Shown piece after piece: positions 23,613 to 56,678 of a stretch of DNA of 64,000 nucleotides (positions are counted from its first letter, which is position 1; each line of letters starts with the position of its first letter). Both the position numbers and the translations under genes were made by a program. The stretch comes from Ulva prolifera (Eukaryota; Chlorophyta; Ulvophyceae; Ulvales; Ulvaceae). The stretch covers positions 2,510,430-2,574,429 of the forward strand of contig CM041204.1 of the NCBI GenBank assembly GCA_023078555.1. The letters are read 5' to 3'. The notes beneath the pieces are model-generated. The model did no database searches and was not told the DNA's origin. It saw only the letters and a program-made list of their open reading frames with translations.

Positions 23613-26001
23613 TTACAAACCAGCATCTATCCAGGTTCTGCTGATTACCAAATCGACACCGGCGGCGTCAGCAGCAGCCTGCAGGCTCACAGGCACCTTG
23701 AAGTCCCCTTCGCACGGCTCAGACCCATCGTCGATGTCAATGTCATAGCTCTCTGGACCGCCAGAATAGCTTCTGCGTTCATTAAGCACGTACACGATCT
23801 GCTGAAGGGCTGGAAGACCACACAGGCCCTGGATGACCAGTAGCACCTCCGCTTTGGGGTGGCGCCGGTAAAGCGACATGCCAAGGTGCCGCAGCTCCGG
23901 CCACGCGCCACACAGTTGCTGCGCCTGACAGGCCGCCACGAGAGCCTCGTGCACGCCGTCGCCACTCACCACAAGCCGTGTGAGGCGCCGGAGAGGCAAC
24001 AGGGCCGGCACGAGGCTTGTGTCCAGCTCTCCGGAATCAGGCAGGTCGAAGTCATTGAGGTGCAGGCCGCGCAGCTGCGTCATCTTGGACAGGGCTTCAA
24101 GGTCCGCCTCAACCCGCACAACGTGCAGGTCGTATCCTTCCAGCCGCAGGGCACTCAAGCAGGTGAGTGAGCTAAGGGAGGGTAGCTGCGGCCCAGGGTG
24201 GTCATCACGGCCGCACACCGAAAGATCCAGGCACTGCAGCTGTAGACGGCCAAGGTGCTCAAGCACCTTCACCCACAAGGACTGCTGTCGAGCGCAGAGG
24301 CAGTCACAGTCGATTGTCAGCTGCTGCAGCGAAGGCATGGCGGCAGCAAGCTGTGGCACCACCAGGTGGAGGGTCCACAAGTCAACGTCGATGTTGAGCT
24401 CTGATATTCCTCGCAGGCCGGTGAGGGCAGCCGGGGTATCGCGGAGCGCGCTGCAAAACGCACGGCTGACCCAGGTCTCGCGGGTGCTGTCGTTGATGTG
24501 CATGCTGCGGACCTCCGAGAACGTGCAGAGGCTTTCTGCGATGCTGGCACGGTCAGGAAAGTGCCCCAGTCCACCCCAATTTGACTGATTCAGAACGAGG
24601 CTTGTGACGGGGCAGGCGTGGAGGCTGTGGAGGAGGCGGGCCGCGGTGGTGCAGTTCTCCGATTTGAGCACGAGGTGGCGCAGGTGTCGCAGAGAGGCGG
24701 TGGCGCCCTCGGAAACTATCATTGGGGCGACACGAGATGTCCATGTCGTAGGCTGGAGGCACATGCTCAGAGAAGTGAGGCCGGACGCGGCGGAGAGCAT
24801 GGCGGCAAGGCAGTACTGTGACTGTGGTGGAGCATCAGGCATGTATGAATCGCGCCGCCGCTTCCGTGTTGGCAGCTCGGGAGATGTGTTCAGTGAGATA
24901 TGGAGACAGCTGAGGTGAGGCAGGCTGTTGAAGGTGGACCGGAGGGCGGGTATGACGTCTGCGGAGCAGCTGGTGTAGCATGTGTCTCGTCCGCCGAGGT
25001 ACAGTGAATGGAGGTGCAAGAGGCTGGAGATTGCTGGACAGAGGACCTTGGCTGCGGCAGCATCGGTCAGCATGCTGATGCTGAGGGTGGAGAGCATGGA
25101 GTGGTGTCGCAGTGCTTTGGCAAGGTGTGTTGCTGTGCGTGTGGAGGGTGGCGTCATGTCAAAGTCTTCAAAGTAGAGGTAGAGCGATGTAATGGATGGA
25201 GGCGAAGTTGGAAGTGTCGTCAGTGCATTGAAGAATGGCAGAGGGTTGTGGCTATGCCCGATACATGCCTTGAGAGTCTGGTGTGGGATCTGGATGGCTG
25301 CATCGACAATGGCTACATGGAGGGTCTTTGGCAGCCACTCAAGCATGGTGTGCACACATGTGAATCCTTGCGCAAGGGCTGCTGACAGGATTTCTCTCTG
25401 GATGTGGTGCGGCAGCGCAAGCAATGTCGTTTCTGCGGTGTTGCTGCCATGGGCGTTGCATAAGGTGGTTCCGCAATCCGAAGCTTCCTTGGACAGCCTG
25501 CTGTTGGGCTTTCCAACAGCTATAGACAGGAGAGACTTTGCTGCGAGCTGAATCCATTCGTCCGCAGAGTGGTCGCCTATAGCGTCTGCCACCTGCACCA
25601 TCTCACACCCTTCACCATTTCTCCAACATGTCTTCCTGTTCCATGTGAAGACCAGGAAAGGTATGAGAAGAGGGATAACGTCGATACGAGGCAGAATCGC
25701 GCCCCCCCAACGTAGTCGCAAGAGGGCAAACCTTGACGATGGTGCAGAGCGTTGAGAATGGCGTGTGTTTCACGTGTTGTTTGCTCGCTGCACCAGCTGC
25801 GACCCATGCCTTGAACTCGGCGACAGTTACCGCTTCGGGCAGCCTCGCGTCACCGCCGGCCTCGGCGATGCAAGACAGCACACTGCTCCTAGATACAGTG
25901 TCCGCGTCTACAATATTGCAGGAAATCAGATCATCATGTGATGTTGTCAAGGGCGCTGTTTGCGTCAAGTGCACAGGACACTGACTGTCACAGTTTTGCA
26001 T
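23613..26001 (-). CDS. Array copy B: SKP1/POZ-like, F-box-like, LRR protein, type 1
   Basis: Exon 1 is 26001-25732 and exon 2 is 25592-23613, joined by a 139-nt GT-AG intron in phase 0; the product is 749 aa. Residues about 10-110 resemble SKP1/POZ: SRSSVLSCIAEAGGDARLPE matches the strand-helix part ending in LP, then TLCTIVK joins VADAIGDHSADEWIQLAAKS across the intron, like TLF.LI.AANYL.I..LL.L. At about 148-195 LPHHIQREIL begins an F-box-like helix, followed by WLPKTLHVAIVDAAI. From about 215 to the end come ribonuclease-inhibitor-type LRRs (LPHLSCLHISL, SGLTSLSMCL, MTQLRGLHLNDFDLP, ALLPLRRLTRLVVS), closing with AAADAAGVDLVI. No signal peptide or membrane segment, so it is probably cytosolic or nuclear. 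A role as E3 substrate receptor is inferred. I chose the ATG whose context and following MQ match other copies. Confidence 0.8.
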
Positions 26002-26131
26002 CGCTAGGTACATCGGGTGGCCCAGCATTCCGCAGGAGTTTGGGGAGTAGCTACTCAGATCTACGTCAATGTGTCTACGATGAAGGACATGCAGGCGGTT
26101 GGCAGAAGTGGCAATCACTCCGGGATGCGCT

Positions 26132-26149
26132 GAGCCTGCAGTGTCCTCA
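26132..26149 (-). promoter_or_regulatory. Shared upstream element of type-1 array genes, copy B
   Basis: On the + strand GAGCCTGCAGTGTCCTCA, 131 bp upstream of the start codon. It differs from the D/G form (GACCCTGCAGTGACCTCG) at three positions. It could be a core promoter or activator site, or part of a conserved 5' leader. Confidence 0.45.
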
Positions 26150-26992
26150 AGACTGCATGTATCACCTGAAAATCTACTTCATTGCGTTCTGTGTATTCAG
26201 ATGCTGAACGCTATATAGCGCTGGGGGTCAACGAGTTGGCCAAGCTTGGGGCAAGTCAAGTCGACTCTGCAGACGTTAGCACGCCCCTGTGGCCACAAAG
26301 ACTCTGGTAGTAAAGTGCCACTCACGGGTGGGAAAGGCCAGTCCAGGCTTGAGCTAACTCTTGGCTGCAGCTATTTCATGCGGACATGATGCGTGACAGC
26401 CCCATGCGGACGCCGACAGTAATGTGCGGATGCCGTTGCTGCATGCAGTGCTTGTAGTTGCAGCCATGGGCATTCCTGTTACTCACTGACAGTATTGGCA
26501 AGTGTACATTGAATAACAAGTACACATATGTGATCCAGCCTAGGCAAGCCTCCGACCTATGCACTTCGCAAACGCAGGCGAAGAAGTAAACAGTGCACAT
26601 GAAGCCAAGGCGACGGACTGATTCCACATCGAGGTGCATTCACACTTGCAGAGCGCACGCAATCAGATAGAATTTTGGGCCTCATTATTGAGGGCTGCGA
26701 AGGTATGCACGTAGAAGCTACCACAGCCGCCAAGGCGCCCCCAGCTCGCACTCGGGTTATAGACAGGCCATACGAAGTGGACCCAAGGACCCAACAACGA
26801 TGCCTGTCAATGCTGCATATCTGGAAACTGCAGCACAGACCTCTCGTATGAATATGTGACTGGAAGAAACACACTCGCTCAAGCTTGTACATATATGCTC
26901 GTCATTCTGTTTGTTGGAAAGCAGTCATTCATGCTTGATTACACACACCAGTTCCACAGGGACATACAAACATCCGATTCGTCATCAACTCG

Positions 26993-29318
26993 CTATGAAT
27001 CCATGAACGTGAAGTCACCAAAGAACTCCACCTTAACTCCAGCTGCAGCGGCGACGTCCCACAGGCTCCCCGGAACATCAGCGATGTCCTCTCCATCGCC
27101 GCCCCTGCGGCCCACATCACCACTGGCACAACCGCACTGAGCAAACAACTCGAGCTGCTGCAGGGCCGGAAGGCCGCACATCGCCCGGAACACCGCCCGA
27201 AGTTCGACGCTAGGGCGTGAAGCATCAAGTGACACGCCGAGGTGCTCCAGCTCTGGCCACACACCTTGCAGCTGCTTCGCCTCGTAGGCCACATGCACCC
27301 CCTCGCCGACCACGAGGAGCTCTGTGAGGCGCCGCAGCGGCAGCAGGGCCAGCATGAGGCGTGCCTGAAACTCTGCTGGCAAGATGAAATCATCCAGGTT
27401 CAGGCTACGCAGCTGCGTCATCCTTGCAAGCGCCTCGACGTCTGCCGCAACCCGCACCATGTTGTAACTGCGCAGCTGCAGAGCAGAGAAGCAGGTCAGT
27501 GGGACCAGGGAGGACGGCCCCGGGCCGGAGTCCTCCCCTTGGCCCTCCACAGTCAGGTCCAGACTCAGCTGCAACGGGCTGAGGTGCCCAAGCACGTCTG
27601 CCCACCGCTCTGGCAGTGAGTCAGGTGTGGTGCCGAGACTGCAGGTGCAGCGGATGGTCAGCTTCCGCAGCGCCGGCATCACGGTAGCAAGCTGCGGCGC
27701 GGCCATGTGAAGGGTCACAAAGTCACCAAACAGCTGGAGCTCGGACAGCTGTTGCAGGGCTGTGAGGGCGGTCGGGGAGAAGTGGAGCAGGACTTCGAGT
27801 GAGCGGGCAGCCCAGGTCCCAGCAGTGCATGTGAGGTGCATGCTACGCAGCTGCGGGAACGCGCACAAGCTGTGCGCGAATTCAGTGCGTATGGCACTGT
27901 TATCGGGTTGCGTGAATTCTGACTGCGTAATCACCAGGCTTGTGAGGGGGGAGGCATCGAGGCTGCGGAGGAGGCGGGCCGCAACGGTGCAGTCATCCAC
28001 CATGAGCGCAGCGTGGCGTAGGTGTGGCAAGGATACGCTCACGCCATCTGGGAAAATGGCGTCGGGGGCGTCAGATTGTAGTGCTGCCAGGGAGTTGCGT
28101 TCCGGCTGGAGGCGGACGTGGAGGGAGGTGAGGCCAGGGGCTGAGGACAGCATGGTAGCGAGGGAATGGTGTGATGGTGGTGGAGCCTCAGGAGTGTCAG
28201 CATCGCGCTGCCGCTTCAGCGCGGGCAGCTGGGATGTCACGTCCAGTGACAGATGGAGACAGTCAAGTTGAGGCAGGCTGCGGAGGACAGACTGGATGTC
28301 GTGTATCGCGTCTGCCGGGAAAAGGGTGTAAAAATCGCCGAGGTTCAGGGAACGGAGGGACGAGAGGCTGCTGATGGCTGGGGCAAGGCGCTGGACTTCG
28401 GCTGCGGTTGCGGCCATGCTGAGTTTGAGGGTGGACAGAGCTGAGTGGTGGCGGAGAGCCGTGGCGATGAGCGATGCTCTATCTGTCGAGCTTGCTGTGG
28501 CTTTCCAGTTCGTGAAGTTGATGTGGAGCGATGCAATGGACGGAGGATCAGCGGGAAGCGTAGCAAGGGCATCGAGGAACGGCAGAGGTTGATGATGTTC
28601 TTCGAAGCATGCCTTTAAACTTCGGTGTGGCGACTTGATGGCTGCATCGACGATGGCTGTGTGGAGGCTCTGTGGCAACCACTGGAGCAGGTTGAGCATG
28701 CATGACCGGTCTGGGGCGCAAGCTGCTGACAGGATCATGCTGCGGGAGTGGTCCTGCAGCGAAGCAAGGCTGAGTGCCGCGGTGCAGCTGGAGAGAGCGC
28801 TGCTGGCTGATGGTTGATCCGTTGGTGTTGTGTCGCGCTCCGGAGCTGCTGCACATGTCAGGCACTCTGCTGCGAGTTGGACCCATTCATCGAGTTTTTG
28901 GTCATCAACGACAACTGCCACCTGCACCAGCTTGCAGCCTCGACAACACGCGCGAAGGCGCCTTCTTCGAAATGCAGATACGGACAATGGTGATGGTGCA
29001 ACGCAAGCACTGAACGATACCGTGCTGCTGAAACAATGTTGCGGCGAAAGTTACCTTGAGAATAGTGCAGAGGGTCGGAAACGGCGTGAGCATCCTCTCC
29101 TCCTCGCTGGCAGCGCACGCTGTGAGCCATGCCCTGAACTCTGGCACGGTCACCGCTTCAGGCAGCCTCGCGTCCCCGCCGGCGTCAGAAATGCAGGATA
29201 GGACACTGCTTCTGGAGACAGTGTTCGCATCTACGACGTCGTAGACGATCAGTTCGCCAGGCGAGATTGTGAAGGGCGCCGTTTGCGTCAAGTGCACAGG
29301 AAGCGATCGCTCTTGCAT
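26993..29318 (-). CDS. Array copy C: SKP1/POZ-like, F-box-like, LRR protein, type 1
   Basis: Exon 1 29318-29055 (88 codons, MQERSLPVHLTQTAP), intron 133 nt, exon 2 28921-26993; 730 aa. The intron joins TLCTILK to VAVVVDDQKLDEWVQLAAEC. The F-box-like segment is less canonical here (LQDHSRSMIL in place of LPxH). The LRR region is full-length, with SSLRSLNLGDF, LPQLDCLHLSLDV, PGLTSLHVRLQ and MTQLRSLNLDDFILP, and the tail SLWDVAAAAGVKVEFFGDF is shared with E and F, marking a subgroup within type 1. The reading frame is open throughout. Spacing to copy B is about 1 kb, the tightest in the array. Confidence 0.8.
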
Positions 29319-29420
29319 CGTGCGATTGAGAATTCGATATGCCTGCTACAACTCCAAAAACAGACGATATGTGTACATATGCGATCAAAAGCAAACAACC
29401 CGGTATGTGCAGTGGGCACG

Positions 29421-29444
29421 GACCCTGCAGATCTAGAGACCTCG
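29421..29444 (-). promoter_or_regulatory. Shared upstream element, copy C
   Basis: GACCCTGCAG then ATCTAGA then GACCTCG, 103 bp upstream of the ATG: the same two half blocks as in D and G, split by a short insertion. Confidence 0.4.
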
Positions 29445-29449
29445 CAACG

Positions 29450-30440
29450 ACAGCCACTGCCTGATCACAATACTGCCTGACCACAACACCTAACATTACC
29501 GAAAAATGTAATTACGCAGAGGTCATCGGCGACGTCTCCGATATAGTGTGCCGGCGTACTGAGTGGGTGATGTGGCGTGTAGCAGCGGACGGGCAGGCCA
29601 CTGTTGAGGCACCTGTGACCACCCACGCGCGTGCATGCACGCCCTCCCCAGACCCACTGGGGTCTACCTGTTTCCGCAAATTTTGTACGCACATGGCCGC
29701 GACTTGAAATTGGCCTTCGTCACGCAGTTTTCGCAGTGGGCGCAGCGGGAACAACATTGCGGCTGTACAGCGCTATATATAGCGAAAAAGATCTAGATCC
29801 CGAGTCATTGCATTCGGTCGAACTTCTAAGTTGAATAACGCTATAGATTTCGATCGGCGCCGCAACGTTTGTTGACTCCGATCAACATGTGGATCCAGCT
29901 GGTAGTAGCTCCACCTGGTAGTGCGACGCCACCAGGCGGGCCATGGCCGCACTCAAGTGTGTTCATCTTACAATTGGGTCTGGAGTAATCAAGGACTCGA
30001 ATAACAACTACGAGATGCTCGCGGTAGTGCACTTGTCCTTGCTGTTGTACCAAATGCATTCACTTCGGTGGACGTATGCTGTGCACATGCTTGCAATGGT
30101 TTTGATCCACTTTCCATGCGTCTTGAGCGGCACTGGCAGCGCAGCTACTGAGTCGCCGTGCATGTTCAGAATTTGTTACATGTCATGTTTGTTACATGTC
30201 ATGATCAGGCTAGCATGACAACATCGCATCCCGCCCGAGAGCACACAGGCCGGTCCTTAAATGTTGGTGAGGCCTCACAGAATGGACTTCAGCTTCGTGC
30301 GTTATTTTTTTTTGAGCCTCGGCAATCTCGTGCGCGATATGGAAGACTGGCTGAGTGCTAGGCAGGTGAAAGCACGCCGACGACAGACACCCTGTCGGTA
30401 AAACGAAACACCTGGAAACACTGTGGCATGCATACGTGTA
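29450..30440. other. Spacer between copies C and D
   Basis: About 1 kb between the upstream element of C and the stop of D. Only short frames are visible; I see no further gene. Confidence 0.4.
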
Positions 30441-30442
30441 TG

Positions 30443-32829
30443 TCAGACACCTACATTCGCATAGTCTCTCTCGATTGTCAATCTGACTGCGGCGGCGGCG
30501 GCAGCAATCTGCAGGCACGCAGGAACTTCAAAACCGCACCTGCATCCCGCCGAACCATCGCCACTCTCGGACCCAATTGCAAGCCTCTCTGGACCGTCAG
30601 AACCGCTGTCTTCTGTGAAAAGCATGACGACAATCTGCTGAAGGACTGGAAGGCCGCACATGGCCCGGACGACCGGCAGCAAGGCAGCTTTGGGCCAACC
30701 CTGGTCAAGGCCCATGCCGAGGTGCCGCAGCTCCGGCCATGCGCCACGCAGCTGATGCGACTCAGAGGCCGCCACGAGAGCCTCATGTACACGGTAACCA
30801 CTCACCACAAGCCGCGTGAGGCGGCGCAATGGCAGCAGGGCCGGCACGAGGAGTGCGTCCAGGTGTCCGCAGAAAGGCAGGTCACAGCCATCCAGGTGCA
30901 GGGCGCGCAGCTGCGTCATCTGTGACAGCGCCTCGAGATCCTCCGCGTTCTGCACAAGACTGTATCCTTCCAGCCGCAGGGCGGTCAAGCAGGTGAGTGC
31001 GAGAAGGGCGGGCAGCGCCGGCCCGGGCTGGTCTTCATCGCCAGTCACGGAGAGATCCAGGCACTGCAGCGCACGCAGCTGCAGACGGCTGAGGTGCCCA
31101 AGCACCTCTGGCCACAAAGACTCCATTCCATCCGAGTAGCAGTCACACTTGACTGTCAGCCGCTGCAGCGAAGGCATGAAGAATGCAAGCGGTGCCGTAG
31201 CCTGGTGGAGGGTCCGCAGGTCCACGGTGATGTTGACATCGGAGACGCCACCCAGCGCGTCAAGGGCGCCCGTATTGCTGAGCTCCCTGCAGAGCGCACG
31301 GCTCACCCAGGTCTCGCACATGCTGGTGATGTGCATGCTGCGCAGCTGCGTGAATGCGCTCAGGCATCCCGCGATGCTTTCACTGTCAGCAGTGTGCGTC
31401 GACCCCACTGAGGCTGGCTGATTCAAATCGAGATCTGTGATGGGAGAAGCGTGGAGGCTGTGGAGGAGGCGGATTGCGACGGTCCAGTCATCTCCCCTGA
31501 GTACAAGATGGCGCAGCTGTTGCAGGCAAATGGTGGCGCCATCGGGAAGTAGTTTGTTCTGATCTGAAGGGGGCAGCTCCCCGGAGATGAGCCGGAGGCG
31601 GAGGGTAAGGGAGGTGAGGCCGGGAGCTGAGGAGAGGAGGGTGGCGAGGCCAGGTCGTAACTGTAATGAAGAGTAACGCGTGTCAGGGTCACGCTGCCGC
31701 TTCAGCGAAGGCAGCTGGGAAGTCACGTCGAGAGAGAGATGGAGACAGCTGAGCTGAGGCAGGCTGCTGAAGGTTGATTGGAGGTTAGGTATGGCGCCTG
31801 CAGGGAAGTGCTTGTGTGGACCGCCAAGGTGCAGTGAGTGGAGGGACGAGAGGCTGGCGATGGCTGGGAGAAGTAATTCGGCTGTGTCAGGGCAGGCAGA
31901 CATGTCGAGGGTGAGGGTGGAGAGCATGGAGTGGTGTCGCAGTGCTGTGGCAAGGTGCGTAGCTGTCCTTGGGGAGGGCGTCTTTGTGCAGGAGCCTGCG
32001 GGATTGTGACAGATCTTGAGCGAAGCAATGGATGGAGGAGAAGCTGGAAGAGTAGCAAGTGCACAGAGGAATGGCAAAGGGTCACGGCGATTCTTGAACT
32101 GTGCCTTGAGAGTTCGGTGTGGGGTCTGAATGGCTGCATGGACGATTGTTTTGTGGAGGCTCTGTGGCGGCCATGCAAGCAAGCCATTCACACATGTCAA
32201 GTCCTGAGATGCGGCTGCTGACAGAACTTCTTGCTGAATGTGATGTGGCAGTGCAGAGAGCGCCAACGGTTCTGCGGTTCCGCTGCCATGGGTGTTGTAT
32301 AAGCTACCTCCACGGTCCAAGGCTTCCGCACAGAGCACACTGTCAGGCTTTCTGACAGCTGTAGACCGCAAAGACCTTGCTGCGAGATGCACCCACTCGT
32401 CCAGAAAAAGGTCGCCAACAACATCTGCCACCTGCACCATCTGACAGCCTTCACCAACACGTCCTGTTCCATGTGCAGGCATGAGGAGGCATGAGAAGAG
32501 AGACTGCTTCGACGTAGTGTAGCACCTCGCCTGCCCAACAGTCTTGAAAGCAAACATACCTTGAGAATGGTGCAGAGCGTCGTAAACGGCATGTGTTTCC
32601 TGTCCTCCTTGCTAGCTGCGCAAGCTGTAACCCATGCCCTGAACTCTGAGACAGCTATCGCTTCGGGCAGCCTCGCGTCACCGCCCGCCTCGGCGATGCA
32701 AGACAAGACGCTACTCCTAGACACAGTCTTCGCATCTACAACGTCGTGAAACATCAATTCGCCGGGTGAGATTGCCACGTGCGCTGTTTGCGTCAAGTGC
32801 ACAGGACGTGGACTTTCGGAGTGTTGCAT
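30443..32829 (-). CDS. Array copy D: SKP1/POZ-like, F-box-like, LRR protein, type 1
   Basis: Exon 1 32829-32560 (90 codons, MQHSESPRPVHLTQTAH), intron 128 nt, exon 2 32431-30443; 752 aa. The SKP1-like core is KTVSRSSVLSCIAEAGGDAR, then FTTLCTILK joined to VADVVGDLFLDEWVHLAARS. The F-box-like helix is LPHHIQQEVLSAAASQD. LRRs run to the end, including ALQCLDLSVTGDEDQ, MTQLRALHLDGCDLP and ALLPLRRLTRLVVS. The C-terminus (IAAAAAAVRLTIERDY) groups with A, B and L rather than C, E, F. A second in-frame ATG lies four codons upstream; the chosen one matches the other copies. Confidence 0.8.
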
Positions 32830-32966
32830 CGCTGGACTCATCGAGCCTGGCGCTACGTTTAGCTACGAGAACCGATTTTTTCCTGCGATTTGTGTCAACT
32901 TTTCAAAGGAGAAGAACACGCAGGCTGCATGGCGCAAAAGGTGTCAGTCGCTTCGGGATACACACT

Positions 32967-32984: not shown

Positions 32985-32989
32985 ATACT

Positions 32990-34150: not shown

Positions 34151-34154
34151 CAAG

Positions 34155-40880: not shown

Positions 40881-43174
40881 TTAAATGAAGAGCCCATCGA
40901 CATGCAACGCCACCCCTGCTGCGGCGGCAACCTGTAACATGCTCGCCGGTATAACATCGCAGCCCTCACCCCCTACAGCTTTGCGGTCCCCCTCACCCCA
41001 GCCATGGCCGCCGTTGTAACACAATTCAAGTTTTCGCAGGGCCCGAAGGCCGCACATGGCCCGAACGATTGCCCGTAAAACCACTCGAGGCCGCGTACTG
41101 TCAAGCGACACCCTGAGGTGTCGCACCTCGGGCCACGCACCGTGCAGCTGCTCCCCGCAGGCCACATGCACGCCCACACAATCAATCACGACGAGCTCTG
41201 TCAAGCGCTGCAGCGACAGCAGGGCCGGCACGAGGCGTGCCTGCAGCTCTGCCGGCAGGGAGAACCCTACCAGGTGCAGGCTATGCATTTGAGTCATCCG
41301 TGAAAGTGCCTCAACATCTGCGGGAGCCCGCATCATGTCGTAATGTCGTAGCCGCAAGGCAGACAAGCCCGGCACTGGGACCAGGGCGGACAGCCCCGGG
41401 CCTGTCTGGTTCGAGCCTGGCGTGATAGACAGGTCCAAATGCAGCTGCAAGCTGCTGAGGTGCTCGAGCACCTGCGCCCAGCCCTCCGGTGATGACTTAA
41501 CCCCAACGCCGCATGTTTCTCTACAGATGGTGGTCACCTGCCGCAGCGCCGGCATTGCGGCAGCAAGGTGCGGCGCAGCCATGTGAAGGTTGTCAAATTC
41601 GAGCTCAATCTTAAGCTCCGAGAGGCGCTGCAGTGCAGTGAGGGCGGTTGGGGGGGTCTGGAGGAGGATACAGAGTGCTCGGGCCGCCCAAGTGTCAGGC
41701 TCACTGTCTAAGTGCATGCTGCGCAGGTGCGGAAACGCATACACCTCGCGCGCGACTTCAGCGCGTGCGGCATCGTCTTCCTCGTTCCTGTCATCTGTCT
41801 GCTCGATGACAAGGCTTGTGAGGGGGGAGGCGTTGAGGCTGCGGAGGAGGCGGGCCGCGATGGTGCAGTCATCCACGTTGAGCACGAGGTGGCGTAGGTG
41901 CCGCAGGGATACGCTCGCACCGTCCGGGAACAGTTCATCTGGGGCGAGCAATTGCGGCGCTACGGGCTGTTCGTAGCCACCCCCAAGCTCTATGTGGAGG
42001 GAGGTGAGGCCGGGGGCTGAGGCGAGCATGGTGGCAAGGCAGTGCTGTGCCGGTGGGGGAGCACCAGGTGGGTCAGCGTCGCGCTGCCGCTTCAGCGTGG
42101 GCTGCTGGGACGTCACGTCCAGTGAGATCAGGAGGGAGTCCAGCTGAGGCAGGCTGTGGAGGGCGACCTGGAGGGCGGGTATGGCGTCTGCCGGGAAGTG
42201 GGTGTGATGACAGCCGAGGTGCAGGGACTGGAGGGATGAGAGGGAGGCGATCGCTGGGGCAAGTAGCTCCGCTTGGGCAGTCGTGGCGCCAATGACGAGT
42301 CGGAGAGCCGCAAGCGCGGAGTGGTGGCGCAAGGCTGTGGCGACGTGCGAAACGACGCCTGACGCGTCGTACGTGCTTCTGAAGTTGATGTGGAGCGATA
42401 CAATGGAGGGAGGATCAGCTGGGAGCGCAGCAAGGGCATCGAGGAAAGGCAGAGGCTGGTACTGTTGAAAGCATGCCTCAAGAGTTCGGTCTGGGGTTTT
42501 GATGGCTGCATCGACAATGGCTGTGTGGAGGCTCTGTGGCGACCGTTCGAGGAGGTCGAACATGCATGTCGGGACTCGAGCGCAAGCTTGTGACAGAATC
42601 ATGCTCTGGGCGTGCTGGTGTAGCGAGGCAAGGCTCTGCGCGACAGTGCGGCGCGTGGAGGGTGTACCGCTGGCCGCCTGTTGCTCCGATGGTGGCTCAT
42701 CCTCCGCCACAAACATCACAAAATTTGCTGCGAGCTGGATCCATTCATCGAGAAATTGGTCGTCTACAGCGATTGCCGCCTGCACCAGCAACCATCTTTG
42801 GCAACGTGCCTTCTGCGACGTACTGATACGAGGAAGGTCCGGCAGAAGGTGATTGTGCGAAGCAAGTGCTCAGCACCATGCTCTGTGGAAACGCTTATGG
42901 CGGACATCACCTTGACAATGGTGCAAATGACCGGAAATAGAATCAGATATCTGTCCTCCTCGCTGGTTGCGCAAGCTGTGATCCATGACCTGAACTCTGA
43001 GACGGACAAATCTTCCGGCAGCCTCGCGTCACCGCCGGCCTCGGCGATGCCTGACAGCACGCTGCTTCTGGCTACAGTCTTTTCATCTATGACGTCATAG
43101 AAAATCAACTGACCGGGCGAGATCGAGACAGGAGCCGTATGTGTCAAGTGCACACGATGCCGAGATTCTTGCAT
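40881..43174 (-). CDS. Array copy G: SKP1/POZ-like, F-box-like, LRR protein, type 1
   Basis: Exon 1 43174-42911 (88 codons, MQESRHRVHLTHTAP), intron 131 nt, exon 2 42779-40881; 720 aa. The junction joins ICTIVK to AAIAVDDQFLDEWIQLAANF. The F-box-like helix is diverged (SLHQHAQSMILSQACAR), as in F. LRRs are closest to copy F along the whole length (for example LDSLLISLDVTSQQPTLKRQ), consistent with a recent tandem duplication. The C-terminus is shorter than in F, ending AAAAGVALHVDGLFI. The frame is fully open. Confidence 0.8.
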
Positions 43175-45152: not shown

Positions 45153-47465
45153 CTACGCCCATGCACTCTTCCATGCAAAGCGCTCTCTGTCCACATGCCA
45201 TTCAAGACACACGCCGGCACCTGAGGCCACGCGGTCCAGGTGCCCGCGAGTCTGGATCTCAGGTTCCCAGTGCCGATGGGTCGGCTCGAGCACGACCGTC
45301 TCAAGAGCAGGGAAAGCCGACACCGCTGCCACGAGCGCTTCAGCTTGCTCCCTGCTTAGAACAGTCACCCCAAGCCATCGCAGGCTCGGCCATGCCGCAG
45401 CGTGCGCATGTTGCGCGAAGTCACTGTTCCACCGCTCGCTCTGCCTCAGGATGAAATCGAGCCTGTCGGCACCAACTCGCACTGCGAGCTGAGTCAGCTT
45501 CGGCAGAGCCCCGAGAGCACGCGACAGGTGCGGCTGCACTTCGGGACCCACCGCAGCGCCTTGAAAGCACAGGCTCTGCAGCGCCTGCAGGCTCGCGAGC
45601 GCCTCACAGTCTTGCTGCGACCCGACACATCGCTCCCAGCCAGACACATGTAGGGCCGTGAGATGAGTCAGCTGCTGCGCGCCCGCACGCATGCCGGGCA
45701 GAACATCCCAGGCCAGTGCATTGCACACATGTATGTCCAAGTGCCGAAGCTCGACGCGGCGTAGGCGCGAGAACAAGGCCCGCCACGAGGATGCAACTGC
45801 AGCTCTCAGGAGTGAAGGCGGGCGGGTGCGTGCGTGCCAGCCGCAGGACACCCGCAGCCGCTGCAAGCCCGCCGCATTGGCAGCTACGCTGATGACCGCG
45901 CGGACGAGCACAAACACATCGGAGCTGATGCTGAGCTCTTGCAGGGTGGACAGAGACCCTAACGCTGCAGAGGCACCTCTGAGCGCTGCCCGCCGGTGGC
46001 GACCCTCTCCCTGGACGTCTAGATTGATGGCGAGGCTCCTCAGCTGCTGGAACCGCGGGAGGCTGTGCAGCAGCTGCTGAGTGTGATCGACGTCACCCGG
46101 CTGCCACGCTGCTGACGCGATGTCAGTGATTTGGAGGGTAGAGAGAGGTGCCGTGAGGTGGCGAAGGAGGGCGCTGGCGACGCTGTGGCGGGAGCCGGTC
46201 ACATGCACGTGGCTGAGGCAGGGCAGGCGAAGAGGGGTGCTGGCTGTGAATTTTCCATCCTGGCTTACGAGCTTCAGGCTGGTGAGGGCCGTGGAAGAAG
46301 AAAATATATCGCTGAGGCAGTGTTGCGGCACCTCTCCTGGCATACCACCTTCGCGGCCACGCTTTAGAGAGTGCAGCATGGAGTCTGCGGAATGGAGCGA
46401 CAAGCTCAGGTCCTGGAGGAGTGACAGCGGCGTCAGGACTGCCTTCAGCACATCCCCTGCCTCGGCAGTGAACGTGTTGTGGAGGTCGAGCGCCTGCAGG
46501 GACGTGAGCGTGGCAATCGCTTGGGCAACAGGCTGGAGTGCCGCAGATGCCCGGAGACCAGGTATTGCGATGCTCAGGCTGGTCATGCTGGAGTGATGGC
46601 GAATAGCCTCGGCTATGCGGAGAGTTGGTGTGGAGTCTGCGCAAGATGTGCGGGCCTCCATGCCCCGATCGCCGTATCGCATGTCACAGTGAAGCTCAAG
46701 GGACAGGATTGCAGGAGGCGATGCTGGCAGCTGTGCGAGGGTCTCAATGACGGACGGCAGCCAGTGGTTTCGCTGATCCGGGATGAGGAGGGCTTTGTCA
46801 GTTGTGATGGCTGCTGCGACAAGCGCGTCATGGTGGTGCACTGGCAAGAGCTCGAGCATCATGTCCAGGCGCATCTTCTGAGGGAACTCTTCGTCGTCTT
46901 CGCTGCTCATGATGCTTTCGAGGACGCGCTGCTGCAGGTGCACAGGTAGCTTGGCCAGGGCCTCAGACATCTCGGGATCAGGATCAGCACCATTGCTGCG
47001 GTGGACGGCCTCCGCCTGTAGCGAGTATGCGATGCTTCCCAGCATTTCATCAAAGTCCACAGCGTCCAGAGCATCAGCGACCTGTACAACAAGTCTTGCT
47101 CGCAACACTGCAGGTACCGATCGATGAAACGCTTCCACACGACTTGACCGACACGTGCAGGTGACGTGCTGGGTCAGCGGTCTCGCTCTGCAGATACACA
47201 CCTTCAGAAGGGTGCACCGCTGGTCCATGTGCTCCCAACTGTGCAGTATGGCAGGATCGGTGATGGACTGAACCCAGGTCCTGAACTCGGATAGAGACAC
47301 AACCTCGGGCAGTCTTGCATCGCCTCCCGCTTCCACGATTGATGATAGAACGCTGGACTGGGACACCACAACGTCTGGAATAGGGATATACATCATGAGC
47401 TGTCCTGCATAGGCCTCGGCTGGTGCCGAGTGCGTCAAGCACACCGGCCCGTCAATCTCCGCCAT
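45153..47465 (-). CDS. Array copy I: SKP1/POZ-like, F-box-like, LRR protein, type 2
   Basis: Exon 1 47465-47202 (88 codons, MAEIDGPVCLTHSAPAEAYA), intron 47201-47082, exon 2 47081-45153; 730 aa when spliced. The intron is 120 nt and has no in-frame stop, so unspliced RNA would encode a 770-aa protein with 40 extra residues inside the SKP1-like domain. The core is VSQSSVLSSIVEAGGDARLP, then CTLLK joined to VADALDAVDFDEMLGSIAYS. The F-box-like helix is LPVHLQQRVLESIM. LRRs differ from type 1 (LTHLTALHVSGWERC, LGALPKLTQLAVRVG), and the tail is GVCLEWHVDRERFAWKSAWA, shared with J. No copy of the type-1 upstream element is recognised. Confidence 0.8.
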   Translation of the reverse strand: MAEIDGPVCLTHSAPAEAYAGQLMMYIPIPDVVVSQSSVLSSIVEAGGDARLPEVVSLSEFRTWVQSITDPAILHSWEHMDQRCTLLKVCICRARPLTQHVTCTCRSSRVEAFHRSVPAVLRARLVVQVADALDAVDFDEMLGSIAYSLQAEAVHRSNGADPDPEMSEALAKLPVHLQQRVLESIMSSEDDEEFPQKMRLDMMLELLPVHHHDALVAAAITTDKALLIPDQRNHWLPSVIETLAQLPASPPAILSLELHCDMRYGDRGMEARTSCADSTPTLRIAEAIRHHSSMTSLSIAIPGLRASAALQPVAQAIATLTSLQALDLHNTFTAEAGDVLKAVLTPLSLLQDLSLSLHSADSMLHSLKRGREGGMPGEVPQHCLSDIFSSSTALTSLKLVSQDGKFTASTPLRLPCLSHVHVTGSRHSVASALLRHLTAPLSTLQITDIASAAWQPGDVDHTQQLLHSLPRFQQLRSLAINLDVQGEGRHRRAALRGASAALGSLSTLQELSISSDVFVLVRAVISVAANAAGLQRLRVSCGWHARTRPPSLLRAAVASSWRALFSRLRRVELRHLDIHVCNALAWDVLPGMRAGAQQLTHLTALHVSGWERCVGSQQDCEALASLQALQSLCFQGAAVGPEVQPHLSRALGALPKLTQLAVRVGADRLDFILRQSERWNSDFAQHAHAAAWPSLRWLGVTVLSREQAEALVAAVSAFPALETVVLEPTHRHWEPEIQTRGHLDRVASGAGVCLEWHVDRERFAWKSAWA

Positions 47466-48724: not shown

Positions 48725-50403
48725 TTACTGTCGCACGTTGGTGTAGTCACCCTCAATTGTTATGACGACTCCGGCGGCGGCGGCACTGCTTCGCAGACTG
48801 TCTGGCACAGCAGGCAGATCTTCGCGGTCGACGTGCCTTCGGCCTCCAACACGACGCCCGCGGCTGTAGAGCACATACACGATCTGCCGAAGGGAGGACA
48901 GGCTACACATACCCTGGACGACTGGCAGCAGCGCATCCAAGCTTAAGGGCCGGGATGATCCGAGCCACATGCGTGAGTTGCGTGCGGTTGCCTGGAGGGG
49001 CACGGGTTTCCAGGTGGTTTACCCCTTCAGCATATGTGGTCCCGTTAAGTCGGATCCGGAGTCGTCAATGTCCAATAGCTATAGGATACGGCTCAGTAAC
49101 TTATTTGAAATCTAGATTTACTTTACCTTACATGCCGAGGCCAAGTGCCCAAGGCCACGCGCCCAGCAGCTGCTGCGCCTGGCAGGCCGCCGCAAAAGCG
49201 TAGTGCTCGCCCGCGGCACTTAGCACGAGGCGCGTGAGGCACCGCAGTGGCAGCAGGGCCGCCACGAAGCTCACGTCCAGCTCAGATCTAGAGCGAGGCA
49301 GGTCAACGTCGTCCAGGTGCAGGTCACACAGCTGCGTCATCCCTGATAGCGTCTCGAAATCCCCTCACTTCGCATAGAGGCCTAGGTGTGACCTTCCAGC
49401 CGCAGGGCAGACAAGTTTGTCAGTGGCGATATGGCAAACAGTGGCAGCGCAGTTGAGGAACACATGTTGAGGCTGAAGCTGGAAAGCTTTGAGTGGTGGA
49501 GAAGTGCAGTGAAGAGGTCCAATGTTATGTTCCAATATTGGAACAGGAATAGCTACAGCTATATACATTTCGCCTCTGATCTGCTTTGGCGGTGGGTGAA
49601 ACTGATACGGAGCGATGCGGTGGATGGAGGCAAAGCTGGGACCTGACAAAGAGCATTGAAATACAACCTACGTCGGGGGTACCACTTGAAGCATGCCTCG
49701 AGAGTTTTGTGCGGAGGCTGGATGGCTGCATGGAGGCTCTCTGACAAAAATGCGAGAAGGTCATTTATAGATCTGGCGTTCGGCGTCAAAGCTGCTAGAA
49801 AATTTCTCTTTGGATGGGGTGTGGCAGTGCATCAAGAATCTTCCGTGCTCTGTAGCTGCAGAGCTCTCTCAGCCCTAGGGTTTCGCATGAGCTGCTCCCA
49901 CTCTCTAGGGCTTGCACCGAAGGAAATTGTTCGACAGCTGCTGACCTCAGACACGCTGCTGCAACCTGGACCCACCCATCGCCGGAGTGGTCGCCTACAG
50001 CGTCTGCCACCTGCACCAGCCTTCGCCAAAACATGTTCTGCCACGGTCAGCTATGAGCAGACATGGGAATCGGAATCGATATCACATGGAGCAGACCCAT
50101 GCCTGCTCAAATCGTTGCGGTGAGACATATATATACCTTGACGATGGTGCAGAGCGTTGAAAATGGTGTGCGCTTCATGTCCTTGCTGCCTGCACCAGCT
50201 GCGAGCCATGCCCTGAACTCCGATGCATTCACCGCTTCTGGCAGCCTCGCGTTACCACCGGCCTCAGCGATGCATGCTAGAACGCTTCTCCTAGAGCCCG
50301 TCTTCGTATCTACGACGTCGTAAAGTACAAGTTCGCCAGATGAGATTGGCACGGGCGCTACTTGCGTGAAGTGCACAGGGCATGAAGCGTTGCAGTCGTG
50401 CAT
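48725..50403 (-). pseudogene. Array copy L: type-1 gene with internal deletion and frameshifts
   Basis: Exon 1 (50403-50137, 89 codons, MHDCNASCPVHFTQVAP) and its donor are intact, and exon 2 begins at 50010 with VADAVGDHSGDGWVQVAAAC, followed by LPHPIQREIF and then a stop near 49797. A second frame continues with SLHAAIQPPHKTLEACF at 49740. Most central LRRs are deleted. At 49340-49128 MTQLCDLHLDDVDLP and ALLPLRCLTRLVLS reappear, and the tail SAAAAGVVITIEGDY ends at 48725. The intact promoter-side element and exon 1 suggest that decay is young or that a short protein is still made. Confidence 0.75.
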
Positions 50404-50537
50404 CGTGATGCTGATTGGCTACTTCAAGAGCTATAATCATTTAAGAGAAGCAAAATTTGCGGATGTCTGCGTTGAATCGTCTGCGAAGCAGCACAGGCTC
50501 TGACACACTGAGTGATTGCCGTTGCGACGTATGCATC

Positions 50538-50556
50538 AAGCCTGCAGTGACTTTCG
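50538..50556 (-). promoter_or_regulatory. Shared upstream element, copy L
   Basis: AAGCCTGCAGTGACTTTCG, 135 bp upstream of the ATG; CCTGCAGTGAC is exact and the flanks have drifted, as expected if the gene no longer needs it. Confidence 0.4.
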
Positions 50557-51126
50557 AGACTGCATCCGACAAGTGACAACGCGGCTGCAACCTGTGTACT
50601 CCGATGGTGCAACTACGCGATGGCGATGCTCATTGGCAACGACTTTGAGCAGTCCCGATGGTTGCCTGTCGCCACTACGTAGTGGCGTACGCGTACGTAC
50701 GTGCAGGTAGCCACCATGATGTCAGGTCAACAGCCGCACTTCGGAAACACCCAAACATGCCCCGATGACGCTGAAAAGATACTACATCACAAATGCATGT
50801 AGCCAGCCACAGGCATGCGTGCAGGCCACCCTTCGCTAGACCTGGGCAACATGCACATGCTGCAGGCCTGCGGCAGTACACCCTGTCGTACGACGTGGCC
50901 TTCTGGAGAGGGGGTTTGCAGGGGAGCGCGTACACGGCATGCATGGGACCAACAGAGGCATCAGATTAACAACATGCAGGAGCTTTGCGCGACGGCAGTG
51001 GGACAAACTTTTATGCATGTGACGTCCCTTATGCGCCGTGCTTTGTTCCTGTGCAGCTGAGTATGCAGACTGGCCAGCTGGTTAGCAGCAACAGCTCACC
51101 GAGGCCTCATGTGCATGCCGCTGTCC

Positions 51127-51213
51127 TACACCAGTGTTGGGTTGTCTGGCCACCCTTAATAGGTAACAATTCCGACCTTTCAGGTCTAATTTCTGGGTGG
51201 CAGCCCTGAAAAT
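51127..51213 (-). repeat. Dispersed repeat, copy 2 of 3 (inverted)
   Basis: Read on the minus strand it starts TTTTCAGGGCTGCCACCCAG and ends CCAACACTGGTGTAGG, matching the repeat at 63155-63238 and, less closely, at 2882-2968. The middle differs (GTTACCTATTAAGGG in place of GTTCTATGTGATCGG). It lies 140 bp beyond the end of copy M. Confidence 0.6.
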
Positions 51214-51349
51214 GTTGCAAAGCGACGCAACACTGTTCTACACACCCGTAAAAACCCCATGCGGCCCGCGCTTATGTATGCCAGCATATCTGATCGCATG
51301 CTTGTATGCGTTGTTACACAGCCATGTCCGGAAGCACACTGGCAACTCA

Positions 51350-53171
51350 TCACGGTGACCCAGTCATGCACACATCTTCGCAGTCGGGCAGCGCATCGGC
51401 TGCCATGACAACCCCTGCCGCGGCGGCAATCTCCCGCAGACTCACCAGCACATCAAAGCTGCGTTTTGCCTCTACTTCACTCGTGTCAAAGCTGTCACAC
51501 ACAAGCATGAGCTGCCGCAGGTCCGGAAGGGCACACAGCGACTGCACGAGTGGCTGTAACTCAGCCGCCGACCGCGGCCTGGCGACCTGCACGCCAGATC
51601 GCGCAGCTCTGGCCACGCGCCGCGCAGCTGCTGCGCCTTGCAGGCCGCGGTGAAAGCCTCATGCATGCCCGCGGCGTTCAGCACGAGCTGCGTGAGGCGC
51701 CGCAGCGGCAGCAGGGCGGGCACGAGGCGCGGCCGCAGCTCCGCGGGCAGGGTGAATTCATTGAGGTGCAGCCCGCGCAGCTGCGTCATCCGCGACAGCG
51801 CCTCGAGGTCCTCTGCGGCACGCACAAGGTTGCGCCCTGCAAGGCGCAGGGCCGACATGCAGGTCAGTGGGACCAGGGCGGACAGCTCCCGCCCGCTGAT
51901 TCCCCTATTGCCGATGACCGCCAGGTCCAGGTTCTGCAGCTGCAAGCCACCGAGGTGGCTGAGCACCTGCGACCAGCCCTCTGGCGACGATTCATACGAA
52001 CCGTCGTCACAACGGCAGAAGATCGTCAAGTGCTGCAGCGCCGGCAGCGCGGTAGAGAGCTGCGGCGCAGCCTTGAAGAGGGCCCAGAAGTCAACTCTCA
52101 GCCTTAGATCGGAGAGTTCGCGGAGCGCGGTGAGGGCACCTCTGGGGGTGTGCAGGACGAGACGGAGCGCACGAGCCGCCCAGGTCTCGGGGACGCTAGC
52201 GAGGTACAGCGTCCGCAGCTGCGGGAACGCGTACATGCTGCGCGCGACGTCCGTGCATTCCGCCACGTCTTCTGCTTGCCAGGGCACTGACTGCTCGAAA
52301 GCGAGGCTTGTGAGGGGGGAGGTGCGGAGGATGTGGAGGAGGCGGGCTGCAGCGGTGCAATCATCCATGCGCAGCGCGAGGTGGCGTAGGTGCTGCAGGG
52401 AGGCGTCCGCAACGTCCGGGAAGAGTTCACCTGCGTCGCCAAGGCGTTGACGCGCGCGCTAGCCCCGGAGCCAGATTCTGAGGGAGGTGAGGCCAAGGGC
52501 TGAGGAGAGGAGGGTGGCGAGGCAGTGCCGTGGCTGTGGTGGAGCATCAGGCGTACCAGCGTCGCGCTGCCGCTTCAACATAGACAGCACAGACTTGACC
52601 TCCAGTGAGATGTGGAGGCAGTCAAGCTGAGGCAGGCTGTGGAGGGCGGCCTGGAGGGCGGGTATGGCGTCTGAGGGGAAGTGGGCTTCGGGATCGCCGA
52701 GGTGCAGAGACTGGAGGGACGACAAGGCTTCGGCAAGAATATTTGCTTCTGTGGTCGTTGGATTCATGCTGAGTTGGAGGGTGGAGAGCATCGAGTGGTG
52801 GCTCAGTGCTGCTGCGAGGTGCGACGCTGTGCTTGTCCTCTCTTCAGTGTTAACACTGAACGTTATGCCAGGTTGCGAAGTCGATGTGGAGCGATGCAAT
52901 GGATGGAGGAGAAGCTGGGAGCGCAGCGAGGGCGTCGAAGAATGGCAGAGGATGATGGTGGGGTAGAAAGGATGCCTTCATAGATCGTTGTGGAGGCTTG
53001 ATGGCTGCGTCGATGATGGCTGCGTGGAGGCTCTGTGGCAGCCACTGGATCAGGTCGAGAGAGCATGTCGAGTCGCGGGCATGAGCTGCTGACAGAATGT
53101 GTCTCTGGGCGTCATCTGGCAGCGAGGAAAGGCTCTGTGCTAGCACCGCTCGCTCAGCCATGCATTCACGA
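51350..53171 (-). pseudogene. Array copy M: type-1 gene lacking the SKP1-like exon, several frameshifts
   Basis: The recognisable sequence starts at about 53171 with SLSSLPDDAQRHILSAAHAR, the F-box-like segment, so exon 1 and the start of exon 2 are gone. Frame changes occur near 52870 (after SIASLHIDFATW), at a stop near 52459, and near 51610 (after LRGAWPELRDL). Between them the LRRs are well preserved (HLRHLALRMDDCTAAARLLH, ALPALQHLTIFCR, MTQLRGLHLNEFTLP, ALLPLRRLTQLVLN) and the tail is EIAAAAGVVMAADALP. Preservation of long LRR stretches indicates recent decay or use as a gene-conversion donor. Confidence 0.75.
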
Positions 53172-53299
53172 AAGGTACTAAAGAGCGCATGTGTGAGGAT
53201 GCCGATTTGGGTCCAGTGCGCATCCGCTTGCCCACACGCAGGCACACTGACCAGCGGCAGTGTACCCGAGCTACTAGCACATCCCGCAATCACAAAGTG

Positions 53300-54370
53300 G
53301 TTCTGCGCATGCAGGCCCTGCTGCAGTGCTCAGCTGGGGGGTCGAATTACCCTGTGACATGCTTGGCAGGTCACAGTGCATCCAAGCTTCCAGACTGCAT
53401 CAAGCAATGTCAGTGGACATTGCATACATGATACGGGAATGTAAAAAGTGCACCGCGTGACGGAAACGTTAGCGCACATCGACTGCTTTTTTTGCATACA
53501 AACTCACAGATGCAATTGGAAATGCGCAGTCTATCTCACCGAATGTAGAAGGGGACGTGAATGGATGCAATCAAGTGTGGGCGTCCCATACGGTCACGTC
53601 GACCCTTTGCACGTACATCCACACTGAATTTCACTGGCACAGCAGAGCATGGCTGCAGCCTTGGGCCCCGCATGCATACAGTCGATGGCGACGAGTGTGG
53701 CATTGCCGGCCGGCCCATCTTTGTTGCTGCACTACGTGGACACTAGCACATTATCTAGATCCACCGGTGTGTCAGCAGTGCTGACTCAGCACTGGCGAGA
53801 GGTTCTAGAGGTGCGAGGTGATACGCATCAGCACACACTGTCTCCTCAGAAATGAACAGACTACTAGTAGTCTACATCGCCTGACATTAGAACCCGGCTC
53901 TGTGACCAGACAAACCTGACTGCAGGAACAATGATCACTGTGCCGGGAGGCCAAGCACAAGCACCAGTGAAGGTGGCTGCAGAGCTCGCCCCTTAGTCGC
54001 CAACTACGCAAGACTGAGGACTAGAGAGGCCGATGGCACTCGACAGCGCGCTGCAGCGCTCTAGCTGCTGGGAGATGGAGAGTTCGAGACGAAGAGAGCC
54101 TTGTGTTCCTGCACAAAAAAGACAACCATGATGCAGTGCAGCACACTGACCTGTGGCCAGTACGTCGTCCAAGATGACGATCTCAGCACAGCTGACTGCG
54201 CAAGGCAGCACCGACCCTGTGCAGCACACGACATGAAACTGTGAACCGGAGCATGCAGCTCGCGACTGGCGGCCACATGGATCCAGTGACTGATCTAGAC
54301 ACTAACAGGCAGCAGCATCACGCAGCGGACAGCAGCAGATGCATGCAGGACGCACCAACAGGGCTCCGGT
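53300..54370. other. Spacer between copies M and J
   Basis: No gene is supported. Short palindromes occur, for example AGACTACTAGTAGTCT at 53858-53873. Upstream of M there is no SKP1-like exon before 54.3 kb, confirming its 5' truncation. Confidence 0.4.
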
Positions 54371-56678
54371 CTACGCCCAAGCACTCTTCCACGCAAAGCG
54401 CTCCCAGTCCAGGCTGTACTTCAGGCACACGCCGGCGTCCGAGGCCAGGCTGTCCATGCGGGCGCGATTCAGAGCCCGCCAGCGCCGCTGGTTCGTCTGG
54501 AGCTCGAGCGTCCGCACAGACGAGAAGCCCGACATGCGCCCCGACACGGCCTCCACGGCTGATTCTGCGTCAGCCTGGAGGGTGACAGCGACCCCAAGCC
54601 ACCGCAGGGACCGCCACGCCGCAGCGGGCGCATGCCACGGAAATGTGATTTTCCACCGCTCTGACTCCCGTGGTGCGCTGCGATCACCCGGCCGCAGCGC
54701 GAGCTGAGTCAGGCTCGGCAGCCCACGGAGGGCACGCATCACGTCCAGCTGCACGACAGGCGTCACTGCAACGTCTTGCAGGCACAGGCTCTGCAGCTGC
54801 TGCAAGCTGGTGAGCGCCACAGAGTCTCGCGGGTCCCAGAGACAGTCCCTCCAGCCAAACAGGTGCAGGGCTGTGAGGTGAGTGAGATGGTGCACGCCCT
54901 CACGCATTCCGGGCAGCAGCCAGCACAGCGCATCACTCGAGCGATTTGGATGCACGCGGACATCGAGATGCCGGAGCGTCACCCGGCTCAAGCTCGTGAG
55001 CAGGGCGCTCCACCAGATTCGCACGTCATCGAGCGTCGGTTCGTCTCCGTGCAGGCCACAAATCAACTGCAGCCGCTGCAAGCCGTCCGCGCTGGCCGCT
55101 ACGCTCGTCACCGCCGGAACGAGCACAGAGACGTCGGCGCTGATGCTGAGTTCCTGCAGAGAAGAGAAAGATGCGAGCGCTTGAGAGGCACCGGAGAGCG
55201 CCTCCGCCCGGTGATCCGCCTCTCCCTTGACGTCCAGGTCGATGGCGAGGCTGCTCAGCTGCTCAAATCGCGGGAGGCTGGACAGCAACTGCTGAGTATG
55301 ACTCACGTTACGCGGCCTCCAGGAAGATGAAGCGTGGTCGCTGATCTGGAGGGTGGAGAGAGGAGCAGTGAGGTGGCTGAGGAGGGCGCTGGCGAGGTTG
55401 TGGTGGGTGCCGGTGACCTTAAGGTGGCTGAGGCACGGAAGATGCAGCGGAGCGCTGGCTGTGAAGCGCTGGTGACCATTCCGACTAGCGACCTCGAGCC
55501 TTGTGAGGGATGTTATGGAAGAGAGCAGGCTGCTGATGCAGAGCTGGGGGGTCTCTGGAGGCGTGCCATTCTCTCGCGCCCGCTTCTGAGGGCGCGACGC
55601 GGTGGCTGAGGGGTCCATCAACAAGCTCAGCTCTTGAAGAGAATGCAGCGGCATCAGGATAGCTTCCAGGAAGCGCCATGCCTGGACAGTGAACGTACTG
55701 CACAGGTGGAGCGCCTGGAGGGAGGTGAGTGTGGCAATCACCTCAGCCAGAGGCTGGAGTGACACCGGCACCTGGGCACTGAGAGACGCGATGCGGAGGC
55801 TGGTGAGCCTAGAATGATGACGCAGCGCTGCGGCAATGCCTGCAGCTGCTGTAGACTCCACAGACTCGGACTTGCAGGCCCCGTTCTTCCATTGCCCATG
55901 GCTCATGTCACAGTGAAGCTCGAGAGATAGGATAGACGGCGGCGACGCTTGGAGCTGTGCTAGAGCTCGGATGATTGAAGGCAGCCACTGGCACCGCTGT
56001 TGTGGGGTGACGAGTGCTTTGTCTGGAGTGATGGCTGCTGCAAGAACCGCATCATGGTGGTGCACGGGCAAGAGCTCGAGCATGGTGTCCAGGCGGGTCT
56101 TACGGGGAAACTCGTCTTCGTCTTCGATACTCATGACGTGTTCTAGCACGCGGTGCTGCAGGTGCACGGGCAGCTTGGACAGGCCCTCAGACATTGCCAG
56201 ACGATCAGCATCAGCACCGCTGCTGTGCTTGATGGCCTCCGCTTGCAGCAGGAACGCTACCGACCGTAGCATCTCCTCGAAATGAACATCGTCCAGAGCA
56301 TCTGCGACCTGCACAGAGCGCCGGTGTCGCAACACGGCAGGTACCAAAGACAGGGACGTGGCCTGCACTTTACACATTGCGTGCGGGACCAGCAGCATAT
56401 ACTGAAAGACCTACCTTCAGGACGGTGCATTGCTGCGCCATTATCAAATTGGGCCGTGTGGTAGGATCAGTGATGGATTGAGACCAAGTCCTGAATTCGG
56501 ACACTGACACGACTTCCGGCAGTCTTGCATCACCTCCCGCTTCCACGATCGCTGATAAGACGCCAGATCGAGACACCACGACGTCTGGAATAGCAGCATA
56601 CATCATGAGCTGTCCTGCGTAGGCCTCGGCTGGAGCCGAGTGCGTCAAGCACACCGGTCCATCGGTCTCTGCCATCAT
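54371..56678 (-). CDS. Array copy J: SKP1/POZ-like, F-box-like, LRR protein, type 2
   Basis: Exon 1 56678-56415 (88 codons, MMAETDGPVCLTHSAP), intron 106 nt, exon 2 56308-54371; 733 aa. The core is VSRSGVLSAIVEAGGDARLP, then CTVLK joined to VADALDDVHFEEMLRSVAFL. The F-box-like helix is LSKLPVHLQHRVLEHVMS, and an acidic IEDEDEF follows. LRRs include LTSLQALHLCSTF, LTRLEVASRNG, LTHLTALHLFGWRDC and LRGLPSLTQLALRPG, ending CLKYSLDWERFAWKSAWA. It is about 9 kb from copy I but clearly its closest intact relative here; copy K shares long nearly identical DNA with its middle. Confidence 0.8.

What the first reader, a model, noticed from the sequence alone, without database searches (positions are those of the whole stretch)
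23613..56678. A natural SKP1-like + F-box-like + LRR fusion in one polypeptide
Seen: every intact copy reads a strand/helix block ending in LP (AGGDARLPE...), then TLCTI(V/L)K plus VADA(V/I)xDxxxDEWxxLAA across the intron, then LPxHxQxxIL followed by a (W)LPxxLHxAIVDAAI helix, then 500 residues of LRR. Known: in SCF ligases SKP1 (pattern LP...TLF.LI.AANYL.I..LL.L) binds a separate F-box protein whose motif begins LPxELxxxIL, and LRRs bind substrate. Inference: this family fuses adaptor, F-box-like element and receptor into one chain, giving a self-contained cullin substrate receptor. I know of no described family with this order.
Basis: partly seen in the sequence, partly recalled or inferred. 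Interest (0 to 1): 0.85.

Follow-up and report, generated by a model that had tools for sequence, protein, structure and literature searches.

The report
Huge BTB-like/LRR receptor gene family
The window holds part of a very large family of genes, spread mostly along one chromosome of an unidentified eukaryote, whose proteins seem to join a BTB-like adaptor-type domain, a short helix like the start of an F-box, and a long leucine-rich-repeat sensor in one chain, possibly to choose proteins for destruction.

Summary
The repeated two-exon genes are real: nine window copies carry exon 1, a phase-0 intron of 106-146 bp and exon 2. One exon-1 query gives 98 matches at E<=0.001 in the 88.9-Mb genome, 87 on this contig.

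The N-terminal domain is not recognisably SKP1 (79 of 1000 shuffles reach the real score). It fits a BTB domain better: 5 of 1000, plausible register, and a same-phase intron at the matching point of a real BTB gene here. But no Pfam BTB match exists and AlphaFold left the domain unresolved, so "BTB-like" is inference.

LPxHxQxxIL does resemble F-box helix 1 (0 of 500 shuffles; second LP motif 52 of 500), but helices 2-3 are missing and the strict motif fails in 4 of 9 window copies.

Best reading: single-chain cullin-type receptors with a constant adaptor end and a faster-evolving LRR. BTB proteins merging adaptor and receptor are known, as is a bacterial BTB-LRR family; this order and expansion in a eukaryote look new.

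The parts
54371..56678 (-). copy K: exon 1 56678-56415, intron 56414-56309 (106 bp), exon 2 56308-54371; 733 aa, open
   Evidence: exon 2 modelled
49795..50403 (-). copy J: exon 1 50403-50137, intron 126 bp, exon 2 begins 50010 and stops after 71 codons (pseudogene-like)
51472..53329 (-). exon-2 fragments of a further copy, no exon 1 found
   Evidence: not among the exon-1 matches
45153..47465 (-). copy H: exon 1 47465-47202, intron 47201-47082 (120 bp, open in frame), exon 2 47081-45153; 730 aa spliced
40881..43174 (-). copy G: exon 1 43174-42911, intron 131 bp, exon 2 42779-40881; 720 aa
36269..38587 (-). copy F: exon 1 38587-38324, intron 136 bp, exon 2 from 38187, reading frame broken near 37.8 kb
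30443..32841 (-). copy D: exon 1 32841-32560, intron 128 bp, exon 2 32431-30443; 756 aa
26993..29318 (-). copy C: exon 1 29318-29055, intron 133 bp, exon 2 28921-26993; 730 aa
23613..26013 (-). copy B: exon 1 26013-25732, intron 139 bp, exon 2 25592-23613; 753 aa
34240..36001 (-). LRR fragments of decayed copies
   Evidence: open frames, read by eye only
63492..63857 (-). LRR fragment at the window's edge; a K-like copy continues beyond the window (L020)
   Evidence: by eye

Best explanation
These are members of a large, fast-turning-over family of single-chain substrate receptors for a cullin-RING ubiquitin ligase, most likely CUL3. Exon 1 plus the first ~40 residues of exon 2 form a BTB-like (SKP1/BTB superfamily) adaptor domain. 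The next ~90 residues form helical hairpins, the first of which resembles F-box helix 1 and may extend the cullin-facing surface as the 3-box does in BTB proteins. The remaining ~500 residues form a ribonuclease-inhibitor-type LRR that selects targets. Shown: gene structure, family size, predicted LRR fold, predicted helical middle, conserved N-terminal end against a faster-evolving LRR, a CUL3 gene in the genome. Inferred: the BTB fold, cullin binding, target degradation.
Against: No Pfam BTB, Skp1 or F-box match in 23 members or 19 trimmed cores; the genome searches with those models list no place in this window. A calmodulin-like chain (6tj7) beats BACH1 in two of three searches, and a search with the longer alignment A1 lists no BTB or F-box chain at all. 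Against the genome's own four BTB domains alone the match is weak (score 11.3, E 0.38). Exon 1 has block pLDDT 29-50. A BTB 3-box comparison aligned out of register. The matching intron is in one of four own BTB genes and needs a GC donor. No cullin-contact residue was tested.
Confidence: 0.5

Rival explanations
1. An immune- or recognition-type LRR receptor family: the BTB-like domain only mediates oligomerisation or signalling, the LRR senses foreign or self/non-self molecules, and no ubiquitin ligase is involved.
For: 98 exon-1 matches at E<=0.001, mostly on one contig; decayed copies in the window; LRR less constrained than the N-terminus; LRR fold hits include NLRC4 and other NLRs.
Against: No nucleotide-binding domain was found in the two full-length proteins scanned; the F-box-helix-like element and the TIR1/COI1/D3 hits point to ligase receptors. 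Site-level positive selection was not tested.
Confidence: 0.25
2. One reading: the N-terminal domain works as a built-in SKP1, clasping the F-box-like helix within the same chain and binding CUL1.
For: The N-terminal domain is plausibly of the SKP1/BTB superfamily; the LPxHLQxRVL helix matches F-box helix 1 while the second LP motif does not; the genome has SKP1 and a CUL1-like gene, the latter by eye.
Against: SKP1 profile near chance (79 of 1000) and out of register; only helix 1 of the F-box is seen; none of 48 entries has the D[LIV]xx[LF]SxVC-type helix-2 pattern that 7 of the 10 fetched F-boxes fit by eye.
Confidence: 0.12
3. The N-terminal exon encodes an unrelated new domain; the BTB resemblance is chance.
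For: No library match at threshold; weak E-values; unresolved model.
Against: Profile register and shuffle test, and the intron position, agree on BTB.
Confidence: 0.13

Closest known systems
Protochlamydia PEX1 family, 73 proteins, BTB in all but three, with LRRs (PMC4209131, passages read)
   Same: N-terminal BTB coupled to C-terminal LRRs; large family expansion
   Different: Bacterial, with a BTB found by profile; here a eukaryotic, intron-bearing, Pfam-invisible BTB-like domain plus an F-box-helix-like middle. No direct sequence comparison was made.
BTB-BACK-Kelch and MATH-BTB receptors of CUL3 ligases (PMC3935762, PMC3616122, PMC4403949; passages read)
   Same: Adaptor and receptor merged in one chain; BTB followed by helical hairpins and a target-binding domain
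   Different: LRR in place of Kelch or MATH; Pfam does not recognise the BTB-like domain; 3-box not detected
F-box/LRR proteins such as TIR1, COI1 and D3
   Same: LP helix followed by an LRR solenoid; among the top Foldseek hits
   Different: F-box helices 2-3 missing; an extra BTB-like domain in front
SKP1 / Elongin C
   Different: Profile match near chance; no Pfam Skp1 match; the genome has a separate true SKP1 gene
Own BTB gene on C7 (L057), ARIA/ABAP1-like (name recalled)
   Same: Phase-0 intron at the matching codon boundary in BTB helix 3
   Different: Clear Pfam BTB match; no LRR in the short part read

Membership tests
SKP1 family | Pfam Skp1_POZ / Skp1 match | tested here: not met
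   None in 23 of 23 members; genome searches find only the true SKP1 gene
SKP1 family | Profile similarity in register across the POZ core | tested here: not met
   Score 14.7, 79 of 1000 shuffles reach it, 10 columns out of register; only six SKP1/Elongin C sequences used
BTB family | Pfam BTB (PF00651) match | tested here: not met
   None in 23 members or 19 trimmed cores; the genome search finds 4 other places
BTB family | Profile similarity in register from helix 1 to helix 3 | tested here: inconclusive
   5 of 1000 shuffles, P 0.019, but Prob only 2.5 and weak against own-genome BTBs alone
BTB family | BTB fold in a confident model | tested here: inconclusive
   Exon 1 block pLDDT 29-50; the query carried an in-frame intron and a shallow alignment
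BTB family | CUL3 contact residues / 3-box | tested here: inconclusive
   3-box comparison aligned out of register, 11 of 500 shuffles; contact residues not tested
F-box family | Pfam F-box match | tested here: not met
   None in 23 members; 11 F-box places elsewhere in the genome
F-box family | Helix 1, LPxxxxxxI/V | tested here: met
   16-17 columns, P 0.0008-0.0091 depending on the stretch given, 0 of 500 shuffles; second LP motif as control 52 of 500
F-box family | Helices 2-3 | tested here: not met
   Profile alignment ends after helix 1; 0 of 48 entries hold the D[LIV]xx[LF]SxVC-type pattern
LRR, ribonuclease-inhibitor type | Alternating strand/helix solenoid | tested here: met
Protochlamydia PEX1 | Sequence homology to PEX1 | not tested
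   Only the architecture was compared, from the paper; a motif scan of genome contigs with A1 confirmed no relative

The most novel reading that the evidence does not exclude
A eukaryote has built a self-contained SCF-like receptor: an SKP1/BTB-superfamily domain that clasps an F-box helix in its own chain and carries the LRR receptor, amplified to nearly a hundred gene places as a variable target-recognition system whose adaptor end stays constant.
Probability: 0.12. Interest if true: 0.8.

Novelty: new variant of a known kind. Interest (0 to 1): 0.5.

Why it matters
If right, one lineage holds nearly a hundred related gene places for ligase receptors, decayed ones included, against 4 BTB and 11 F-box places that Pfam models find in its genome (lower bounds, since genes were searched exon by exon). 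Standard annotation would miss the ligase link because neither Pfam nor NCBIfam recognises the N-terminal domain. The family would let one test directly whether a eukaryote uses a large, variable set of LRR ubiquitin-ligase receptors for recognition, and it bears on how BTB, SKP1 and F-box modules recombine.

Tried and rejected

Limits of the shuffle tests: columns were shuffled, so the local order that any helical protein has is lost, and this may flatter the F-box and BTB results; the first-motif stretch was cut out after I knew where the match lay. The first F-box set (6 of 10 loci) was picked with an LP filter; one search used all ten. Several alignments for the structure job were tried and dropped because exon-2 rows misaligned (A3 to A7). 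In A1, one of 24 chosen sequences (L042) was left out for an insertion.

Full report
What is there. The window is G000:C9:2510430-2574429 of an 88.9-Mb, 44-contig genome, eukaryotic by its introns, SKP1 and cullins. On the minus strand it holds nine copies with a recognisable exon 1 (A, B, C, D, F, G, H, J, K) of 88-94 codons, a phase-0 GT-AG intron of 106-146 bp, and exon 2; six copies (B, C, D, G, H, K) are open for 632-662 further codons. A and F have frame breaks, J stops after 71 exon-2 codons, and more fragments lie at 34-36, 51.5-53.3 and 63.5-63.9 kb.

Family size. A search with the exon 2 of copy K gives 53 matches. A search with the exon 1 of the paralog at C3:4934164 gives 116 matches at E<=1, of which 98 are at E<=0.001 and 87 of these on contig C9, between 1.47 and 4.03 Mb; a few matches may be pieces of one place, and decayed copies are included. 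Of 30 fetched exon-2 loci, window copies H and K among them, 28 could be spliced, 28 of 28 with donor and acceptor at the expected place and phase; a second set of 20, partly overlapping, gave 19. Distant kin on contig C5 (L080, L081) share the exon-1 motif and donor position, and LPKHLRRVVL follows downstream of L081.

N-terminal part. Neither BTB, Skp1 nor F-box of Pfam is matched in 23 members, and the genome searches with those models find 1 SKP1 gene, 4 BTB places and 11 F-box places, none in this window. Searching solved structures, the core profile gives the BACH1 BTB domain at E 0.16, 0.54 and 0.12, not significant and beaten in the last two by a calmodulin-like chain over 21-22 residues; the longer profile A1 lists no BTB chain. 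Profile-profile comparison of 38 family sequences with nine BTB sequences scores 19.5, P 0.019, along the BTB core, and 5 of 1000 column shuffles reach it; with six SKP1/Elongin C sequences 79 of 1000 reach it and the 10-column alignment is out of register. In 9 of 9 leave-one-out runs the same stretches align (P 0.018-0.12), but with the four own-genome BTB domains alone the score is weak. Independently, the genome's BTB gene L057 is interrupted by a phase-0 GC-AG intron at LLQ|AADQYLL, the counterpart of the family's VLK|VADALDD in the alignment made without intron knowledge; one of four own BTB genes has it. I therefore call the domain BTB-like, at about 0.7, not SKP1-like. The model of exon 1 is unresolved (block pLDDT 29-50).

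F-box-like part. The first LP motif matches helix 1 of the genome's own F-boxes over 16-17 columns. With six F-boxes that I had picked by an LP filter, 0 of 500 shuffles reach the score, whether the family or the F-box columns are shuffled; with all ten fetched F-boxes and no filter, still 0 of 500, while the second LP motif is at chance, 52 of 500. The match ends there: helices 2 and 3 are not seen. The region is predicted as consecutive helices. A comparison with five BTB 3-box sequences did not align in register.

Function. A review states that BTB proteins merge adaptor and receptor in one chain (PMC4403949, passages); another that BTB shares a fold with SKP1 and Elongin C and that the 3-box after BTB has a role analogous to the F-box (PMC3935762, passages). 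A BTB-LRR family of 73 proteins is described in Protochlamydia (PMC4209131, passages). This genome has a CUL3 (one 71-residue exon tested) and two other cullins, CUL1-like and CUL4-like by eye. Between window copies, dN/dS is 0.21-0.46 in the N-terminal domain (8 of 15 pairs measurable) and 0.41-0.67 in the LRR (15 of 15), the LRR value being higher in 8 of 8 comparable pairs: a kept adaptor and a changing receptor. Cullin binding and degradation are inferred.

Verdict. It is a new variant of a known kind, single-chain cullin receptors, notable for its order and for its nearly one hundred gene places.

Noticed in passing
window 5371-56678 and G000:C9:2427241-2498448: The A-K block appears duplicated 69-98 kb upstream: eight of its nine exon-1 places have a partner of near-equal score, and the exon-2 protein of K is 100% identical (rounded) to that of a copy at C9:2496156.
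   Followed up: partly
window 47082-47201: The 120-bp intron of copy H is open in frame, so the gene reads as one 777-codon frame; its duplicate L018 and loci L032 and L035 also read through. Optional intron retention is possible.
   Followed up: no
G000:C5:8.95-9.10 Mb (L080, L081, L084): A second cluster of distant relatives with the same exon-1 end and, at L081, an LPKHLRRVVL motif downstream.
   Followed up: partly
L082 (C9:2033070) and L083 (C3:2204522): A divergent exon-1 subfamily (EAVSEEVIARSAVLTSI.EAGGDAMLPGSVTLA.FRIW).
   Followed up: no
window 16917-17324: ORF with a weak Pfam DUF6381 match, E 0.00018, below its cut-off.
   Followed up: no
window 60105-61175: 356-codon plus-strand ORF without a Pfam match at E<=0.01.
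   Followed up: no
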